Positions 1 through 7,600 of a stretch of DNA of 20,206 nucleotides are shown here, in pieces. The first letter of the stretch is position 1. Each line of letters starts with the position of its first letter. The notes under the pieces were generated by a model. That model had not been told where the DNA came from and did not search any database. It saw only the letters and a list, made by a program, of their open reading frames with translations. This stretch comes from a virus, in IMG/VR virus record IMGVR_UViG_3300037961_003562, positions 1-20,206 of that record; one strand, 5' to 3'. A program made the position numbers and the translations under genes.

Positions 1-265
1 CTCGTGTTGTGATCTCTAGTGACCATGGGTCTCCAGCGGTGGTAACTGAAAAGGTTGTTGAATCCCCAGCAATATCGGAGCTGGGCGTTACATTACTGCC
101 AGACCAGCTCGAATAATCACCTCCATACACCTCCGTTTCAATAGTACGTTCGATGTCGATGGTAGTAGTTGTAGTGGATTGCATTGACCCCTGGGTAAAC
201 TGCGGGGTAACAGTTTGAGCTGATGCAGGCGCAGCCAACAGCAGCAACAGAAGTAGCTTCTTCAT
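1..265 (-). CDS. Secreted protein with signal peptide, 3' end outside window
   Basis: This is the first 88 codons of a gene that is still open at the window edge. It starts MKK followed by a run of seven leucines and then AAPASA-Q, a textbook Sec signal peptide (basic n-region, Leu core, Ala-x-Ala cleavage after about residue 16). The mature part is rich in Thr and Ser, with a TTTTT run, then a GGDYSSWSGSN stretch and a predicted beta-rich sequence. Its ATG overlaps the stop of the two-helix membrane gene upstream as ATGA, so the two are probably translationally coupled; an AAGGA sits directly before the ATG. I recall similar secreted proteins near the fibers of cyanophages, but no enzymatic motif is visible and the function is unknown. 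A phage protein exported to the periplasm in a fiber/lysis region might act in lysis, envelope modification or virion decoration; that is inference only. Confidence 0.8.
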   Translation of the reverse strand, partial: MKKLLLLLLLAAPASAQTVTPQFTQGSMQSTTTTTIDIERTIETEVYGGDYSSWSGSNVTPSSDIAGDSTTFSVTTAGDPWSLEITTR

Positions 266-438
266 TCCTTTTTTTCTCGTGTAATTGAAAAAGTTGCTAG
301 AGTGCCGCTAAGAATTGATGCGACATAGGTAGGATCCATCTTTTCCATCCATCCTGCATAACTAGCAGTTAGGAGTCCGGCGGACCAGACGAGGACGATG
401 AATTTGATGAACCCTTCCGTTTTGTTATTTTTGTCCAT
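262..438 (-). CDS. 58-residue two-helix membrane protein, holin-like
   Basis: An uninterrupted 58-codon frame starts MDKNNKTEG. It carries two hydrophobic segments, about residues 11-30 (FIVLVWSAGLLTASYAGW core) and 37-52 (TYVASILSGTLATFSI core), joined by a short charged turn (MEKMD), and ends in charged REKKE. Small size, two helices and charged termini are the layout of class II holins such as T7 gp17.5, which also lies just downstream of the fiber gene; the function is inferred from this and not proven. The first 70 bases overlap the 3' end of the proline-rich gene in another frame, and the stop overlaps the next start as ATGA. There is no clear Shine-Dalgarno. A shorter start at 348 would remove the first helix, so the 438 start is preferred. 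It could instead be a generic membrane protein. Confidence 0.72.
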   Translation of the reverse strand: MDKNNKTEGFIKFIVLVWSAGLLTASYAGWMEKMDPTYVASILSGTLATFSITREKKE

Positions 439-827
439 GCTTGTTTAAGGATGGGCTTCATTACAGTTACAGTATGTTTAAATACTGCCGTTGCTGTAAG
501 GGTGGCTGCAACAGACACGGTGGCAGTAGTACCAGCCGTGACAAGGATTTCATTAGAAGGCAGGGGTACAGTTACATCCGTAAATGGAACATCCACCTGC
601 CTTGTATCCTGCGGTAGTTTAACCGGAGGAGGTTTAGGTTTTGGTTTCTCTTTGTCAGATTGTGTTGTTCCTTTGACTCCCGGAGGTGGCCGAAGGTCGC
701 TAGGAGGCACCACAAGCGGCTTGTATGAGGGCAAATCCGCTCGTGGGACATCTAGTACCGGACGGGGTAAAACAAGGGGCTCAGGGAGCCGTAGAGACGG
801 TAGTACCGGCGGCTCACCTAAATCCAT
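369..827 (-). CDS. Proline-rich protein with C-terminal membrane-like segment
   Basis: A 152-residue protein whose first 90 residues are dominated by Pro, Leu, Val and charged residues, including LPEPLVLPRP (14-23), SYKPLVVPP (34-42) and KPKPKPPPVKLP (61-72). A hydrophobic, small-residue segment follows (about 94-123, rich in Ala, Thr, Val), then a basic stretch (KQAWTKITKRK) and a Ser-rich tail ending GPPDS. The layout suggests an extended N-terminal arm anchored by one membrane helix or a beta-rich segment. The start is set by the TAATG junction with the 53-residue gene upstream. A similar proline motif occurs in the gp14-like virion protein of this window. It may be a structural or spanin-like protein, but no lipobox or signal peptide is present to support a spanin. 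Related proteins seem familiar from cyanophages; the function is unknown. Confidence 0.8.
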   Translation of the reverse strand: MDLGEPPVLPSLRLPEPLVLPRPVLDVPRADLPSYKPLVVPPSDLRPPPGVKGTTQSDKEKPKPKPPPVKLPQDTRQVDVPFTDVTVPLPSNEILVTAGTTATVSVAATLTATAVFKHTVTVMKPILKQAWTKITKRKGSSNSSSSSGPPDS

Positions 828-990: not shown

Positions 991-1233
991 TTATTCAGCA
1001 GGAAGGACAGCAGTACCAGCAGTAATAGCAGCGTTCAGAGGTGCAAGATCTTCAGTAGTCCAGAAGTCCTTAGCAACCATAATTTCAAGGTGCTCAACGT
1101 TACGACGAACAGTGTCAACCTGCTCATCATCACGCTCAGACAGAGCAACCAGTTCGTTAATCAATGTGACGCTATCGCTAGCAGCAGAGTAGTGTTGAGC
1201 GATTTCTTGAGCAGTAAGAGTTTCTTCAGGCAT
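991..1233 (-). CDS. Conserved-looking 80-residue phage protein of unknown function
   Basis: An 80-residue acidic, helical protein starting MPEETLTAQEIAQHYSAA, with SVTLINELVALSE and DDEQVDTVRRNVEHLEIMV in the middle and DFWTTEDLAPLNAAITAG near the end. It is probably an all-helical small protein, perhaps a helical pair. The ATG at 1233 overlaps the last codons of the fiber gene by 8 bases (ATGCCTGA). A longer start at 1284 exists in frame, but its extra residues (MYRQSKILNLKSK and so on) come from the fiber-coding region and do not look like a protein N-terminus, so it was rejected. Small proteins of this pattern, placed right after fibers, look familiar from cyanophages. A role in fiber assembly or as a minor virion component is possible but not shown. 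Confidence 0.82.
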   Translation of the reverse strand: MPEETLTAQEIAQHYSAASDSVTLINELVALSERDDEQVDTVRRNVEHLEIMVAKDFWTTEDLAPLNAAITAGTAVLPAE

Positions 1234-1534
1234 TTGATTTAAGAGTTTCGATTTCAGATTTAAGATCTTTGATTGCCTGTACAAGGACAGGGATGAGTTG
1301 CCCGTAGGCAGCCTCTAGACGGTCAGGGTTAGAATCCATAACCATCTTCAGGTATTCAGCATCAGAGGTAGACTGGGCAGATTGCAGATCTTGAGCAATA
1401 AAACCAGCTTCATAAGAACCATCTTTACCGTTACCATCACGGGTGTCCCATTTGAATTTAACGGGACGGAGAGTATCAATAAAGTCAAGACCCAAAGGCA
1501 GATTTTCTACTTCAGTCTTGTCACGACCATCAGA
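1226..1534 (-). other. S74-type self-cleaving intramolecular chaperone domain
   Basis: The last 102 residues of the fiber start at Ser2023 in the motif S-D-G-R-D-K. The S-D-x-R-x-K pattern is the hallmark of the peptidase S74 / intramolecular chaperone family, where the conserved Ser is the first residue after the cut. It is followed by FIDTLRPVKFKWD, EAGFIAQDLQ and a C-terminal helix ending KSEIETLKSNA, all typical of the family. The released domain would help trimerise the fiber and then leave, giving a mature fiber of about 2022 residues. Cleavage itself is inferred from the family. Confidence 0.88.
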
Positions 1535-4500
1535 CAAGCTGCTAATGGTCTGCGTATTGCAACGCAAAGTGCTAACGCTGCTATTGCCTAGCGTGATTTC
1601 GTTGGTTGCTGTTGCAGAACTTGCGTCAGCGTCGTATCCAATAACAGTGAGGTTTGAGCCTGTGGTGATGCTGTTGCCAGCTTGACGACCAAGAGCAGTG
1701 TTTTGAGTACCGGAAGTGTTAAGAACGAGAGCTGCTTCACCAACAGCAGTGTTGTAATCAGCGGTGGTGTTGGCACCCAAAGCGTCCATACCGACAGCTG
1801 TGTTGCCGTTCCCAGTTGTATTTGCGTCAAGAGCTTTTGAACCAAAAGCAGCGTTTTGCGTGCCAGTATTGTTTAGCCGTAAGGTCTGAAAGCCAACTGC
1901 AGTGTTGTGGTCGGCAGTTGTATTTGCATACAAAGCCATAAAGCCTTGAGCAGTATTATTTTCACCAGTCGTGTTGCTATACAGACTGTCTGCACCGACA
2001 GCAGTATTTGCATCGGCAACAGTTTGGCTCGTTAGTGCTCTATAACCAAGGGCTGTGTTGTTGTGCCGTGTTGTGTTTGCATCAAGAGCATTAGTTCCTA
2101 AAGCAACGTTGGCAGTGCCTGTGGTGTTTGCGTAAAGAGCTAAACGTCCAACAGCCGTGTTATTGCTAGCAGTATTTTGCTCTAATGCTTGTCTGCCTAC
2201 AGCTACGTTGTCGTTGCCCGTTTGATTTGACTCAAGGGACTCTGCACCAACAGCAACGTTGTTAGCGCCAGTGGTGTTTACAACAAGAGCTTGAGAACCA
2301 ACAGCTAGGTTGGATGCGCCAGTAGTGTTTAAAAGAAGCGTGTTGTAACCAACGGCGGTGTTTTGACCTGCAGTGGTATTGCTATTCAGTGCAGCGCGAC
2401 CTACGGCTGTGTTGGTCGCACCAGTGGTGTTAGAAAGTAACGCTTGATACCCTACTGCTGTGTTGTAAACACCAGTTGTGGTGGATTGGAGCGACTGCGA
2501 ACCAACACCAGTATTTTCCGTAGCAGTGGTGTTTGCGGATAAACAGTTGTAACCAATCGCAGTGTTGTTGTTGGCAGTTGTATTCCCATCAAGCGTAAAT
2601 TGACCAATAGCAGTGTTTTGTGTGCCAGTGGTGTTACTTTCCAGAGCTTTGTAGCCAACAGCGCAGTTGTTATTGGCGGTGTTATTTTCCAAAGCATCAT
2701 GCCCAACCGCAATGTTCTGACCTCCGGTTGTATTTGCTGCTAAAGCTGATCCACCAATAGCAACGTTTCGGATACCAGAAGTTGTAGCGCCAGCACTATT
2801 GTACCCAATAGCAACATTGCTAGAGCCGGTAGTATTCGCATCAAGAGCAAGCGCACCAACCGCAACGTTTTGCGTGCCAGTGGTGTTTGCAGTCAAGGCT
2901 TCATGACCAACACCCGTGTTGTCACTTGCTGTTGTATTTGCATCAAGTGTGTTATTGCCAATGGCTATGTTTCTGTTGCCAGTGGTGTTGGCAAGAAGAG
3001 ACTGATGTCCAACAGCGATGTTCTTTTCTGCAGTAGTGTTGTTAAAAAGGGCACTATAACCAATAGCTGTATTGTAATTTCCAGTGGTATTTGCGTAAAT
3101 ACAATTTTGACCAACAGCGGTGTTTCTAACCCCTGTGGTGTTTAAGCGAAGAGAAGAGACGCCAACGGCACTGTTATTAGAACCTTCTGTGTTATTACCA
3201 AGCGAATCCTTGCCAACAGCAGTGTTTTGATCGCCAGTGGTGTTTTTAGTCAAAGCATCAGTGCCAACAGCACTGTTGTTTGAGCCAGTCGTATTTACTC
3301 GGAGAGTGTCTCTGCCAAGTGCAGAGTTACTGCTGCCCGTGCTGTTGGTAAACAACGAGTCATAGCCGACCGCAGTGTTGTGGCTAGCCGTGTTCGCATA
3401 TAGTGCGTTATAGCCGACGGATACGTTTGCTGTTCCCGTTTCATTTGACCGAGATGCATTTACTCCAACAGCAACGTTTTGACCTGCGGTAGTGTTAGAG
3501 AAAAGAGCATCTTGACCAATAGCGGTGTTGCTGAAGCCCGTAGTGTTTGAACCAAGCGCACCTTTGCCAAAAGCATTACAATTACTTCCAGTCGTATTTG
3601 CATCTAGAGACTGGTACCCCACCGCAACGTTGTTGTTGCCAGTGGTGTTGGCACTAAGAGCAGATTTGCCAACAGCAGAGTTTTGGGCACCCGTAGTGTT
3701 TGCCCCAAGAGCGTCAACACCTAAAGCACTATTGAAATAGCCAGTGGTGTTGGCGTCCATTGCCAACGAACCAACACCAGTATTTTGCGAGCCAGTGGTG
3801 TTTGCAGTTAGAGCATCTGTTCCAACAGCGGTGTTATTGCTTGCGGTGGTGTTTGCGTCAAGAGCGTGTGCGCCGACAGCTGTATTATTTGTGCCTGAAG
3901 TGTTGTTGAAGATTGCTCTTTTACCAACACCAGTGTTGCTGTTAGCGGTGTTGTCACGACCAGCTTCACTTCCGACAAAAGTGTTGCTTGCACCTGTTTG
4001 GTTACTAGACAAGGCTAGGTAACCAACAGCAGTATTGTCGTTTGCAGTTGTGTTTGCAGTAAGAGCATTTCGGCCAACAGCGGTATTTTGCGTGCCAGTG
4101 GTATTTTCTTCTAAAGACTGATAACCGAAAGCAGCATTGTCATTAGCAGTGGTGTTTTTCTCTAGGGCTTGGTAACCGTACGCTGTGTTGTAATTACCAG
4201 TTGTGTTTTGATGTATGCACTCAACACCTACTGCAGTGTTTCGTACGCCAGTGGTGTTGTTCTCAAGAGAATTAGTACCGACCGCAGTGTTACTGCTTGA
4301 TGTAGTTGTATATTTAAGAGCGTCTTTGCCAACGGCAACGTTGTAATCACCTGTAGTAACGAATTTCAACGCATCGGAGCCTATAGCAATCGAATCAGCT
4401 GCTCCATTTGCAGTGGTCATCGCTTGATAACCAATGGCAATGTTATTGGAATGAGTCAGGGTTGAAGCAAGAGCTGATACACCCAGGGCTACGTTTTGAG

Positions 4501-7500
4501 TGCCAGTAGTGTTAGCCCCAAGAGCGTGTTCACCTACAGCAGTATTTAGAGCCCCTGTGGTGTTTGCATCCATGCATTTCGCGCCGACAGCGGTGTTGCT
4601 TGAGGCGGTATTAGCCGAGAGTGCTTCAGCACCTACAGCAGTATTGTTATTTGAAGTTGTATTTGCATCAAGCGCAAGTGAACCTACAGCGACGTTTCGC
4701 GTGCCAGTGGTGTTAGCATAAAGGGCTTGGTGTCCAACACCTGTGTTATTGGCAGCAGTGGTGTTTTGACGCAGTGCGTCTTTTCCAACAGCTGTATTAC
4801 TAAACCCTACGGTGTTACTAAAAAGAGTTTGTCGGCCAACAGCAGTATTGTCGTGTGCTGTAGTGTTGCTCTTTAGGCTTTGATAACCGATTGCAGTATT
4901 GTCGTCTGCAGTGGTGTTAGCAACGAGGGCTTGGTAGCCCGTTGCAACGTTTCTTGTACCGGAAGAATTAACCCTTAAAGCGCTATTGCCTACAGCAACG
5001 TTTCCAGAAGCAGTCGTACTCGACAGTAAAGCACTTACTCCAACAGCAGTATTTTCGTTCCCGGTAGTGTTGGCTTGAAGCGCAGTTGCACCGACAGCAA
5101 TGTTGCTCAATCCCTCGGTGTTTGCAGTCAACGCCTCATCACCAATCGCCGTATTGTTCGTGCCTGTGGTATTGGCATCCAGTGCGTTGTTGCCGACAAC
5201 CGTGTTAGTCGCAACGTCACCCGCTCCACGGCCAACAGTTACACTATTGATAGTTGCTTCAGATTGAATGTCAACTACACCAGTGCCGTGTGGATTGAGA
5301 ACGATGTTTTCGTTACCAGCATCAGTAACAATTTGGTTACCGTTGACATCCAAATTACCACCAAGTTGTGGTGTCAGATCCGACAACAGGTTAAACGCAA
5401 TAGAACCTTCAGGAATGGTAACGAAACCAAGCTGTTGGTCTACCTCAAAGAACGGATCATCAGTCTGGTTACCACCAACAGTAAACTTACCATTTTGGTC
5501 AGTAGTAGCAGTCCAGATCTTACCATTATCCAGCTCGATTTTTTGGTTAGCATCTACAGGCACACCACCATTTTCAGGCAATGCCGTGTAGTCAGTACCG
5601 CTACCAACGTATTCCATGGTGTGACCGCTAGAAGCAATCATCGACCTAAGGAAGAACGACACAGCAGCGCCATCGCTAATTGCACCATTAACACCAAGGT
5701 TAGTGCTACGGTTGTTAGGATCAGGACGACTGATAGTCACAGTCCAGCCAGAACCATTAGCAACAGCAGACAAAATAGGATAGGTGACGCTGTTCACAGT
5801 CACCAACTGGTTGCCTGCAGGACGAGTAGCAGAACCGTGCCAACCAGCACCAGCAGTAGGTGCATCGATGTTAAAACTAATAGCACCGTCAGAAACAGCA
5901 CCATCAATGGTTGAAGTAAAGATTGCAGTAGTAGATTTACCGCTAGCAATCAAACCATAACGACCAAAGTCACTTGTAGATGCAGCAAGGTTTGCTTGAC
6001 CGCCATTGATACAAGTGATGTGTGCGTGGTTGAAGAACGCATAGCTACTGGTAGCCTGCACGTAACCATTGTTGGTAACAAAGATGCCAGGTGCATCTAG
6101 ACCAGTGTGGGTATAGCTATCGCAAACGATAGACCGTAGCGGAGAGTTTTGGTGAGGTGTTGAACCATCAACAAGCAAACCACCACCAGTCGGTGCAGAA
6201 TCAAGGTCACCAGCACGTCCTTTGTCAGTATCACCAGCATAGAAACCAAGATTGGTGTTATCAATCTCAGAGTCAGAGAAGTTGGTACAGTTTTGGATGT
6301 ACGGAGACTTGTAGATATAAGCGTTGTTGTAGAACGCAACGTTCCAACCCTGTGTCGGAGGCAGACCATAGGTAGCGTTTTCCCACAGAGAGCCAGTAGC
6401 ACCACGTGTGCCGCTTGCCTTCATACCAGTGAACGTCAAATTCTTCAGGTACGAACCACTGTTGACCTCAAACATCGTTGCGGTTTCAGTAGCAGCAGTA
6501 GGATGGATCACACACTGACGCAACGCTGAACCAACAATAGCAACGTCACGTTTTTGAATTTGGATCGGACATGCTTCTTGGTACACACCAGGAGCAACAA
6601 TAACAATACTACCATCACCATAGGTAGCATCGTTGTTAATTTGGTTGATAGCAGCCTTAATAGTACGCTTAGGTGTGCTGATACGGTGACCATCAGCGTT
6701 ATCATCACCCGCTGTAGCATCTACGTAAACAACCTTAGGCTGGTTACTGAACGTACCACCAGAGGCAACACCTAGCCAGTTAGTACCGTCCCAAACTGAC
6801 AGTGTTTTGTCGTTGTTATTTTGAAGCCATGTCTTACCGGCTTCCCAGCTTGAACCACTAGGAGTACCAGTTTGCACGATGGTGTCAAACCGCCGTGCAG
6901 CAGCAGATGCAGTAAAGATGTTGGTATCAGCAGGAGATGGAGAGCCAGCATTCTGCTCATTATAAGTAATGATGTCCGTATCTTTGATACGATCAAAATC
7001 AACAGAGCCAGCACCTAAACCAACCGTAATAGTACCGTCACCATCATCAGTAATAGACACACCATCAGATCCGGCAATGTCATTAGTAATGGCAGTGTCG
7101 ATACGATTATCAATGGCTGCCGTTGTAGCAATAGTGTCATCATTGTCCGGCCAAGTTTCACTGCTAGTAATGGTTTCTGTTGCTTCATCTTGGAAGCGGG
7201 CGTCCATTGCAGCAGTAGTGGCAATTTGGGTGTCACTGCTTACCCAAGTTTCGTTAGACTTGATGGTTTCAGTATCGACATCCCAAGTACTTTCTCGTAC
7301 TTCTTCAACAGCAAAATTGTTTTGCGTAAAGTTATCATTAAGATCTTCTGCTTTAATTGCAGAACCAGCAAAGAACGTAGCCTTCAAAGAAGACACATCC
7401 GTCTCACGATAGATACGGATTTTAGCGCCGCTTGCTGGTGCTGTTGTAAAACTGAGGGTGGTAGCGTTGGCAAAAGTAAATGCAGTTGTAGCTGTGCCGT

Positions 7501-7600
7501 CAATAGTTACTTTGACTTCAGCTTCTTTAATGTATTCAAATGTAAATGAATAGTTCGTGGTTGAACCATTCCCTGTGTATTCAACAAAAGTGTTAGCCAT
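1226..7600 (-). CDS. Giant tail fiber: T7-type attachment, beta-helix, 70 repeats, S74 chaperone
   Basis: A 2124-residue receptor-binding fiber. Residues 1-100 resemble the T7 gp17 N-terminal domain that docks on the tail (VEYTGNGSTTNYSF, EVKVTIDG, SAIKAEDLNDNF). Residues 110-170 are two tandem repeats of about 31 residues. Residues about 289-660 look like a right-handed beta-helix (VVYVDATAGDDNADG opening, IVIVAPGVYQE, VAIVGSALRQCVI). A glycine/asparagine linker runs to 798. Residues 799-1982 are 70 YadA-head-like units of 17 residues. The C-terminus (about 2023-2124) is an S74-type intramolecular chaperone that normally cuts itself off after trimerisation. T7 gp17 has 553 residues, so this is nearly four times longer. 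It sits 20 bases after the gp16-like gene with only a weak ribosome binding site. The fiber call is firm; domain limits are estimates. Confidence 0.95.
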   Translation of the reverse strand: MANTFVEYTGNGSTTNYSFTFEYIKEAEVKVTIDGTATTAFTFANATTLSFTTAPASGAKIRIYRETDVSSLKATFFAGSAIKAEDLNDNFTQNNFAVEEVRESTWDVDTETIKSNETWVSSDTQIATTAAMDARFQDEATETITSSETWPDNDDTIATTAAIDNRIDTAITNDIAGSDGVSITDDGDGTITVGLGAGSVDFDRIKDTDIITYNEQNAGSPSPADTNIFTASAAARRFDTIVQTGTPSGSSWEAGKTWLQNNNDKTLSVWDGTNWLGVASGGTFSNQPKVVYVDATAGDDNADGHRISTPKRTIKAAINQINNDATYGDGSIVIVAPGVYQEACPIQIQKRDVAIVGSALRQCVIHPTAATETATMFEVNSGSYLKNLTFTGMKASGTRGATGSLWENATYGLPPTQGWNVAFYNNAYIYKSPYIQNCTNFSDSEIDNTNLGFYAGDTDKGRAGDLDSAPTGGGLLVDGSTPHQNSPLRSIVCDSYTHTGLDAPGIFVTNNGYVQATSSYAFFNHAHITCINGGQANLAASTSDFGRYGLIASGKSTTAIFTSTIDGAVSDGAISFNIDAPTAGAGWHGSATRPAGNQLVTVNSVTYPILSAVANGSGWTVTISRPDPNNRSTNLGVNGAISDGAAVSFFLRSMIASSGHTMEYVGSGTDYTALPENGGVPVDANQKIELDNGKIWTATTDQNGKFTVGGNQTDDPFFEVDQQLGFVTIPEGSIAFNLLSDLTPQLGGNLDVNGNQIVTDAGNENIVLNPHGTGVVDIQSEATINSVTVGRGAGDVATNTVVGNNALDANTTGTNNTAIGDEALTANTEGLSNIAVGATALQANTTGNENTAVGVSALLSSTTASGNVAVGNSALRVNSSGTRNVATGYQALVANTTADDNTAIGYQSLKSNTTAHDNTAVGRQTLFSNTVGFSNTAVGKDALRQNTTAANNTGVGHQALYANTTGTRNVAVGSLALDANTTSNNNTAVGAEALSANTASSNTAVGAKCMDANTTGALNTAVGEHALGANTTGTQNVALGVSALASTLTHSNNIAIGYQAMTTANGAADSIAIGSDALKFVTTGDYNVAVGKDALKYTTTSSSNTAVGTNSLENNTTGVRNTAVGVECIHQNTTGNYNTAYGYQALEKNTTANDNAAFGYQSLEENTTGTQNTAVGRNALTANTTANDNTAVGYLALSSNQTGASNTFVGSEAGRDNTANSNTGVGKRAIFNNTSGTNNTAVGAHALDANTTASNNTAVGTDALTANTTGSQNTGVGSLAMDANTTGYFNSALGVDALGANTTGAQNSAVGKSALSANTTGNNNVAVGYQSLDANTTGSNCNAFGKGALGSNTTGFSNTAIGQDALFSNTTAGQNVAVGVNASRSNETGTANVSVGYNALYANTASHNTAVGYDSLFTNSTGSSNSALGRDTLRVNTTGSNNSAVGTDALTKNTTGDQNTAVGKDSLGNNTEGSNNSAVGVSSLRLNTTGVRNTAVGQNCIYANTTGNYNTAIGYSALFNNTTAEKNIAVGHQSLLANTTGNRNIAIGNNTLDANTTASDNTGVGHEALTANTTGTQNVAVGALALDANTTGSSNVAIGYNSAGATTSGIRNVAIGGSALAANTTGGQNIAVGHDALENNTANNNCAVGYKALESNTTGTQNTAIGQFTLDGNTTANNNTAIGYNCLSANTTATENTGVGSQSLQSTTTGVYNTAVGYQALLSNTTGATNTAVGRAALNSNTTAGQNTAVGYNTLLLNTTGASNLAVGSQALVVNTTGANNVAVGAESLESNQTGNDNVAVGRQALEQNTASNNTAVGRLALYANTTGTANVALGTNALDANTTRHNNTALGYRALTSQTVADANTAVGADSLYSNTTGENNTAQGFMALYANTTADHNTAVGFQTLRLNNTGTQNAAFGSKALDANTTGNGNTAVGMDALGANTTADYNTAVGEAALVLNTSGTQNTALGRQAGNSITTGSNLTVIGYDADASSATATNEITLGNSSVSTLRCNTQTISSLSDGRDKTEVENLPLGLDFIDTLRPVKFKWDTRDGNGKDGSYEAGFIAQDLQSAQSTSDAEYLKMVMDSNPDRLEAAYGQLIPVLVQAIKDLKSEIETLKSNA
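1655..5206 (-). repeat. 70 tandem 17-residue (51-base) YadA-head-like coding repeats
   Basis: Residues 799-1982 of the fiber split by eye into 70 consecutive units with the consensus N-T-A-V-G-x-x-A-L-x-x-N-T-T-G-x-x. Sixty-four units are 17 residues and six are 16 residues (units 12, 25, 36, 50, 60, 70), giving 1184 residues, which matches the nucleotide span exactly. The spaced VG and AL positions resemble the left-handed beta-roll of YadA-type trimeric adhesin heads, although the classical YadA unit is about 14 residues. Codons differ freely between units while the residues hold, so the array is not a fresh DNA-level expansion. The repeats probably make a long trimeric stalk or adhesive shaft. 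Confidence 0.93.
7091..7273 (-). repeat. Two tandem ~31-residue spacer repeats in the fiber N-terminus
   Basis: Residues 110-140 and 141-170 of the fiber align as TETI-x-S-x-ETW-x(3)-D-T-x-IATTAA-x-D-x-R. The two copies differ by one residue in length and many residues at unconstrained positions. They lie between the tail-attachment domain and the beta-helix and may act as a flexible or coiled spacer. Confidence 0.8.

What the first reader, a model, noticed from the sequence alone, without database searches (positions are those of the whole stretch)
1655..5206. A podovirus fiber built of 70 YadA-head-like repeats
Nearly 1200 residues are an unbroken array of 17-residue units (consensus NTAVGxxALxxNTTGxx), with 70 counted and the total matching the span exactly. 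T7-like fibers are usually 500-1000 residues. An array this long, attached to a short-tailed phage by a T7-type docking domain, suggests an exceptionally long stalk or an adhesive surface with many equal sites, borrowed from the trimeric-adhesin fold.
Basis: partly seen in the sequence, partly recalled or inferred. Interest (0 to 1): 0.72.

Follow-up and report, generated by a model that had tools for sequence, protein, structure and literature searches.

The report
Swappable repeat tip on phage fibre
A marine T7-like phage carries an attachment fibre whose outer half is a 70-unit repeat coil that has been swapped in as a cassette, together with a self-cleaving folding domain and a small, previously unnamed helical protein that accompanies such repeat fibres in many unrelated phages.

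Summary
The 2124-aa fibre (window 1226-7600, minus strand) has a T7-type N-terminus, a conserved middle, then 70 uninterrupted units at residues 799-1983 (65 of 17 aa, 5 of 16), a 39-residue cap and a C-terminal S74 intramolecular-chaperone domain. No 21-base word repeats within the array DNA, so collapse of reads is unlikely. AlphaFold gives a regular beta-solenoid, but the YadA label is weak: the YadA_head profile scores 12.3 bits (cut-off 25) and no PDB structure matches significantly. Length is not exceptional: a relative has 90 units, and a T7-type fibre with YadA-like and S74 ends was described in 2014.

A sibling contig (94.6% nt over 12.3 kb) breaks at fibre residue ~757, directly after a PQLGGNLDVNG hinge, and matches again at the stop codon of the next small gene. 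That gene (orf80) overlaps the fibre stop. In an independent search 67 of 69 orf80 loci had such an array upstream, and all 7 phage records carrying orf80 are array phages; no orf80 was found in 84 comparison loci, nearly all lacking arrays. Likely reading: an exchangeable receptor-binding solenoid plus a dedicated helical partner, probably a folding chaperone.

The parts
1226..7600 (-). tail-fibre gene, 2124 aa
   Evidence: intact ORF
7244..7594 (-). T7-type tail-fibre N-terminal (virion docking) domain, residues 3-119
   Evidence: PF03906 E 4.4e-17; weak phmmer matches to tail-fibre N-terminal segments of solved phage structures 8e4g/8dsp
5339..6760 (-). conserved middle region, residues about 281-754, possibly beta-helical (weak Pectinesterase profile match below cut-off)
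   Evidence: shared with the related contigs and with S-RIP2/S-SBP1 fibres; PF01095 18.9 bits, cut-off 27
5339..5371 (-). hinge motif PQLGGNLDVNG, residues 744-754, directly before the exchange point
   Evidence: sibling homology stops at residue about 755-758 in L006 and L132; motif present in 21 of 84 related fibres
1652..5206 (-). array of 70 NTAVGxxALxxNTTGxx units, residues 799-1983
   Evidence: unit scan and shuffles; AlphaFold solenoid for its last 13 units
1535..1651 (-). array end cap, residues 1984-2022, ends ...CNTQTISSL
   Evidence: conserved between array fibres
1229..1534 (-). S74 intramolecular chaperone, residues 2023-2124; predicted self-cleavage between L2022 and S2023 (SDGRDK, Ser and Lys five positions apart)
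   Evidence: PF13884 E 1.8e-9; S[DN]xRxK motif in most array relatives; Ser-Lys dyad S911/K916 of endoNF described in PMC8326128
991..1233 (-). orf80: 80-aa three-helix protein; its ATG overlaps the fibre stop by 8 nt (ATGCCTGA); conserved partner of array fibres
993..5330 (-). exchanged cassette (array + cap + S74 + orf80) replaced by other DNA in sibling contig L006
   Evidence: blastn: 94.6% identity up to window 5330, none across the cassette, resumes at 993

Best explanation
This is the host-recognition fibre of a cyanophage-like T7-type podovirus. Residues 1-754 are the conserved virion-proximal part. After a PQLGGNLDVNG hinge the phage carries an exchangeable distal cassette: a 70-coil beta-solenoid, an end cap, a C-terminal S74 domain and the overlapping gene orf80. 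Inferred mechanism: three chains are brought together by the S74 domain, the solenoid folds, and S74 cuts itself off before Ser2023, so that the mature fibre ends in the solenoid with no separate globular tip. The solenoid is then the adhesive surface, offering many similar polar Asn/Thr/Gly loops. Orf80, a small all-helical protein probably made by translational coupling, is a dedicated partner of this kind of solenoid, most likely a folding or trimerisation chaperone that works like T4 gp57A without being its detectable homologue. Shown by computation: domain order, repeat number, monomer solenoid, cassette boundaries, Ser-Lys motif, orf80 linkage and predicted fold. Inferred: trimer, cleavage, receptor binding, chaperone role.
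For: Domains; units; solenoid model; matches to predicted viral solenoids at E down to 4e-13. Cassette: L006 is 94.6% identical over 12.3 kb, homology ends at fibre residue about 757 and resumes at the orf80 stop; L132 ends at the same point and resumes at orf80, where the array is a separate gene; 1 of 84 related loci has an array. Ser-Lys motif SDGRDK at 2023 matches the dyad of endoNF and MyRF. Orf80: 120 loci hit, none among L002-L085; found on its own it has an array upstream in 67 of 69 evaluable loci, 52 within 200 nt; only 7 of 50,697 phage records carry it and all have an array in the gene next or next-but-one; it stays 76-80% identical in L113 and L132, where the S74 part is only 29-34% identical, pointing to the array rather than S74 as its partner. 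T4 gp57A: 79-residue chaperone for trimerisation of fibre proteins.
Against: No experiment. Only 23 of 56 non-redundant array genes with enough downstream sequence have orf80, so arrays fold without it elsewhere. S74 alone is a known trimerisation aid, so a second chaperone is not obviously needed. The trimer could not be modelled and the S74 part of the monomer model is poor (pLDDT about 30-40 for most of it). No sequence or fold similarity of orf80 to any known chaperone.
Confidence: 0.6

Rival explanations
1. The array is a passive spacer: a rigid stalk of about 34 nm that reaches through a surface layer, and receptor binding lies elsewhere. In this version orf80 would be the adhesin that caps the stalk tip, as gp38 does on some T4-like fibres.
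For: Repeat number varies from a few to 90 units among relatives, as expected of a length element; S74 removal would leave a bare end; orf80 sits where a tip adhesin gene would sit.
Against: Orf80 is strongly conserved (V22, R44, H48, L49 invariant in 43 sequences; carriers include phages of SAR11, roseobacters and Methylophilales), which does not look like a host-specific tip. Core positions of the units are fixed while positions 6, 7, 10, 16 and 17 vary freely, which also fits an adhesive surface.
Confidence: 0.22
2. One reading: a true YadA-type trimeric adhesin head transferred from bacteria.
For: Local N-x-A-V/I-G resemblance, PF05658 at 12.3 bits; Mizuno et al. 2014 call a similar pelagiphage fibre end YadA-like, with S74 (PMC3909814).
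Against: Below the family cut-off; period 17 and not the roughly 14 of YadA heads (own knowledge); no significant solved-structure match by sequence or fold; no anchor domain.
Confidence: 0.13
3. Orf80 is a positional hitch-hiker with no functional tie to the fibre.
For: In HTVC111P and HTVC112P a glycosyltransferase gene lies between fibre and orf80, and in CRP-1 orf80 lies upstream of the array gene.
Against: 67 of 69 loci with an array upstream across unrelated phages, against 1 of 84 loci with an array among relatives sharing the fibre N-terminus; kept beside the array when S74 or the N-terminus is replaced.
Confidence: 0.15

Closest known systems
Pelagiphage T7-like fibre with YadA-like domain and S74 (Mizuno et al. 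2014, PMC3909814)
   Same: PF03906 N-terminus, YadA-like part and S74 in two described pelagiphage fibres; variable C-terminus taken as host recognition
   Different: different host group; no repeat count, cassette boundary or partner gene is reported in the section read
Endosialidase / T5 L-shaped fibre S74 (intramolecular chaperone) proteins
   Same: S74 profile and the Ser-x4-Lys motif at the predicted cut
   Different: the part upstream is a 70-coil solenoid and not an enzyme or a triple-beta-helix stem; cleavage untested
T4 gp57A and tail-fibre assembly chaperones (Tfa family, Pam3 gp25, V22 gp27)
   Same: orf80 is a small phage protein beside the fibre gene; gp57A is 79 residues, orf80 is 80 and predicted all-helical
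   Different: no profile match of orf80 to any Pfam family at cut-off or to a known structure; Pam3 gp25 is 162 residues with a beta-sandwich domain; V22 gp27 relatives carry DUF4376
YadA-type trimeric autotransporter adhesin heads
   Same: N-x-A-V/I-G motif in a parallel beta-solenoid
   Different: profile below cut-off, 17-residue coil, no membrane anchor
S-TIM4 YadA-domain structural protein (PMC6224464)
   Same: large cyanophage YadA-labelled structural protein (2235 aa), mutated when the phage adapted to sub-optimal hosts
   Different: phage is a myovirus; sequence not aligned here

Membership tests
T7-type tail fibre | PF03906 N-terminal domain over the gathering score | tested here: met
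   62.7 bits against 25.2
T7-type tail fibre | gene lies in a T7-like structural cluster (capsid, tail tube, nozzle, internal proteins) | tested here: met
S74 intramolecular chaperone proteins | PF13884 over cut-off at the C-terminus | tested here: met
   38.1 bits against 22
S74 intramolecular chaperone proteins | Ser-Lys dyad five positions apart at the cut | tested here: met
   SDGRDK at 2023, conserved in relatives
S74 intramolecular chaperone proteins | trimerisation and self-cleavage | not testable with these tools
   needs protein
YadA-type adhesin head | PF05658 over cut-off | tested here: not met
   12.3 bits against 25
YadA-type adhesin head | solved YadA head as significant sequence or fold match | tested here: not met
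   (monomer model only)
YadA-type adhesin head | regular parallel beta-solenoid | tested here: met
   one strand every 17 residues in the AlphaFold monomer
YadA-type adhesin head | trimeric left-handed beta-roll | not testable with these tools
   no multimer prediction on hand
Tail-fibre chaperone families (for orf80) | curated profile match | tested here: not met
   only scattered weak matches in Pfam; 5 of 23 members weakly match the unannotated phrog_12220
Tail-fibre chaperone families (for orf80) | works as a chaperone for the adjacent fibre | not testable with these tools
   genomic linkage only

The most novel reading that the evidence does not exclude
Orf80 defines an unnamed family of dedicated assembly factors or structural partners for NTAVG-solenoid fibres, and array + S74 + orf80 moves as a receptor-binding cassette between unrelated phages of cyanobacteria, SAR11, roseobacters and Methylophilales.
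Probability: 0.5. Interest if true: 0.6.

Novelty: new variant of a known kind. Interest (0 to 1): 0.5.

Why it matters
Host range of the phages that kill the most abundant marine bacteria is set by fibre ends that mostly have no known fold or partner. A sharply bounded cassette, a sibling contig that carries a different end on an almost identical body, and a small companion gene give a concrete way to recognise and test receptor-binding modules in uncultured marine phages. The companion gene can also serve as a marker: where orf80 occurs, an array fibre is almost always next to it.

Tried and rejected
YadA membership by Pfam, NCBIfam, PDB sequence and PDB fold searches: no significant result. 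Segmental duplication inside the array: the best diagonal of unit similarity does not exceed shuffled unit order. Regular spacing of the five 16-residue units (units 12, 25, 36, 50, 60; chance about 8e-5, post hoc) as a structural rule: the relatives do not show the same spacing, so it is not claimed. Orf80 as a known chaperone: no profile, sequence or fold match. Orf80 as a cellular gene: only 7 metagenome-assembled contigs among about 85,000 genomes, 4 of them beside an array as well. A paper search for a left-handed parallel beta-roll in phage tail fibres gave nothing.

Full report
Observation. The window is the whole of a 20,206-base virus record. All large genes lie on the minus strand: capsid, tail tube, nozzle, two unassigned or virion proteins, a 1294-aa internal virion protein, then the fibre, window 1226-7600, 2124 aa. 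A scoring matrix made from its own units finds 70 abutting units at residues 799-1983: 65 of 17 and five of 16 residues. Shuffled sequence of the same composition gives about 6 matches. The units are diverged at DNA level (mean identity 53%; longest exact repeat 20 bases; no TRF array), so the count should be trusted.

Anatomy. Residues 3-119 are a T7-type fibre N-domain (PF03906, E 4e-17); residues 2023-2124 hold an S74 intramolecular chaperone (PF13884, E 2e-9). The S74 part begins with SDGRDK, the Ser-x4-Lys arrangement that forms the catalytic dyad of endosialidase endoNF (S911/K916) and of MyRF; most array relatives keep it. If it cuts there, the mature fibre ends with the solenoid and a 39-residue cap. 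This is a prediction.

Fold. AlphaFold2 on residues 1764-2124 with 15 sequences gives a regular solenoid with one strand every 17 residues (array pLDDT about 75-90); the S74 part is not resolved as a monomer. Foldseek finds the same solenoid in predicted viral proteins, among them a Bodo saltans virus adhesion protein and a Prochlorococcus phage P-SSM5 protein, but nothing significant among solved structures. The YadA_head profile gives 12.3 bits, cut-off 25. So 'beta-solenoid' is supported and 'YadA head' is a resemblance only.

How unusual is the length? Relatives with the same repeats are common in phages. One has 90 units in a complete 1829-aa ORF (L129), and one T7-type fibre is 2298 aa (L093). 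Among 60 complete relatives that share this fibre's N-terminus the median is 1090 aa and the maximum 1765, so within its own clade this fibre is long. Mizuno et al. 2014 (PMC3909814) already describe pelagiphage fibres with PF03906, a YadA-like part and S74.

A cassette. Of 84 loci L002-L085, nearly all chosen for sharing the fibre N-terminus, only one has an array. Contig L006 is 94.6% identical to the window over 12.3 kb, ends at fibre residue about 757, just after the hinge PQLGGNLDVNG, carries a different 760-residue end without array or recognisable S74 and a different small gene, and is again 84% identical from the stop codon of orf80 onwards. Contig L132 stops at the same residue and resumes at orf80; there the array is a separate gene. 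The array, cap, S74 and orf80 therefore behave as one exchangeable unit. Which of the two sibling states is older is not shown.

Orf80. The 80-codon gene starts inside the fibre stop (ATGCCTGA). Relatives lie directly behind array fibres in many loci and in none of L002-L085. An independent search with the orf80 alignment gave 80 loci; 67 of the 69 with at least 700 bases upstream have an array upstream, 52 within 200 nt; the two exceptions have less than 1 kb of upstream sequence. Seven of 50,697 phage records carry it: phages of SAR11, roseobacters, Methylophilales and one uncultured siphovirus, and all seven have an array fibre in the neighbouring gene or one gene away. The reverse is weaker: 23 of 56 non-redundant arrays have orf80. 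It stays highly conserved where the S74 part is replaced by a distant one (L113, L132). The model is a confident three-helix protein (pLDDT 93.6) without significant relatives of known fold or profile. T4 gp57A, a 79-residue chaperone needed for trimerisation of fibre proteins, is the closest functional analogue, by size and role beside a fibre only.

Judgement. The given finding is real and mostly of a known kind. What adds interest is the clean cassette boundary and the tightly linked, unnamed companion protein. Its role as chaperone is inferred from linkage, size and predicted fold. Caveats: only the best 80 of 567 orf80 relatives were inspected; the repeat detector was trained on this fibre; trimer, cleavage and binding are untested.

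Noticed in passing
window 991-1233 (-): Unnamed 80-aa three-helix protein family (orf80) linked to NTAVG-array fibres; two tandem copies in L091 and L095.
   Followed up: yes
window array, units 12, 25, 36, 50, 60: The five 16-residue units all read NTA[SN]x in place of NTTGxx and are evenly spaced (10-14 units; chance about 8e-5, post hoc); relatives do not share the spacing.
   Followed up: partly
L109, L135, L148 array ORFs: In these relatives about every fourth unit is 19 or 21 residues long, a four-unit super-period.
   Followed up: no
L045 and L098 (contig IMGVR_UViG_3300037963_001909, around 20737-20746): The array of the one related array fibre is split over two loci with a 10-base break, possibly a scaffold gap or masked bases.
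   Followed up: no
window 2-265 (-) and 369-827 (-): A protein with an apparent signal peptide (MKKLLLLLLLAAPASAQ) and a proline-rich 152-aa protein (phrog_9426) follow the cassette; both are conserved in sibling L006.
   Followed up: no
L006 10001-14626: The alternative fibre end of the sibling consists of VGIGTSSP-type repeats with ERMRIDSSG motifs and no recognisable S74.
   Followed up: partly
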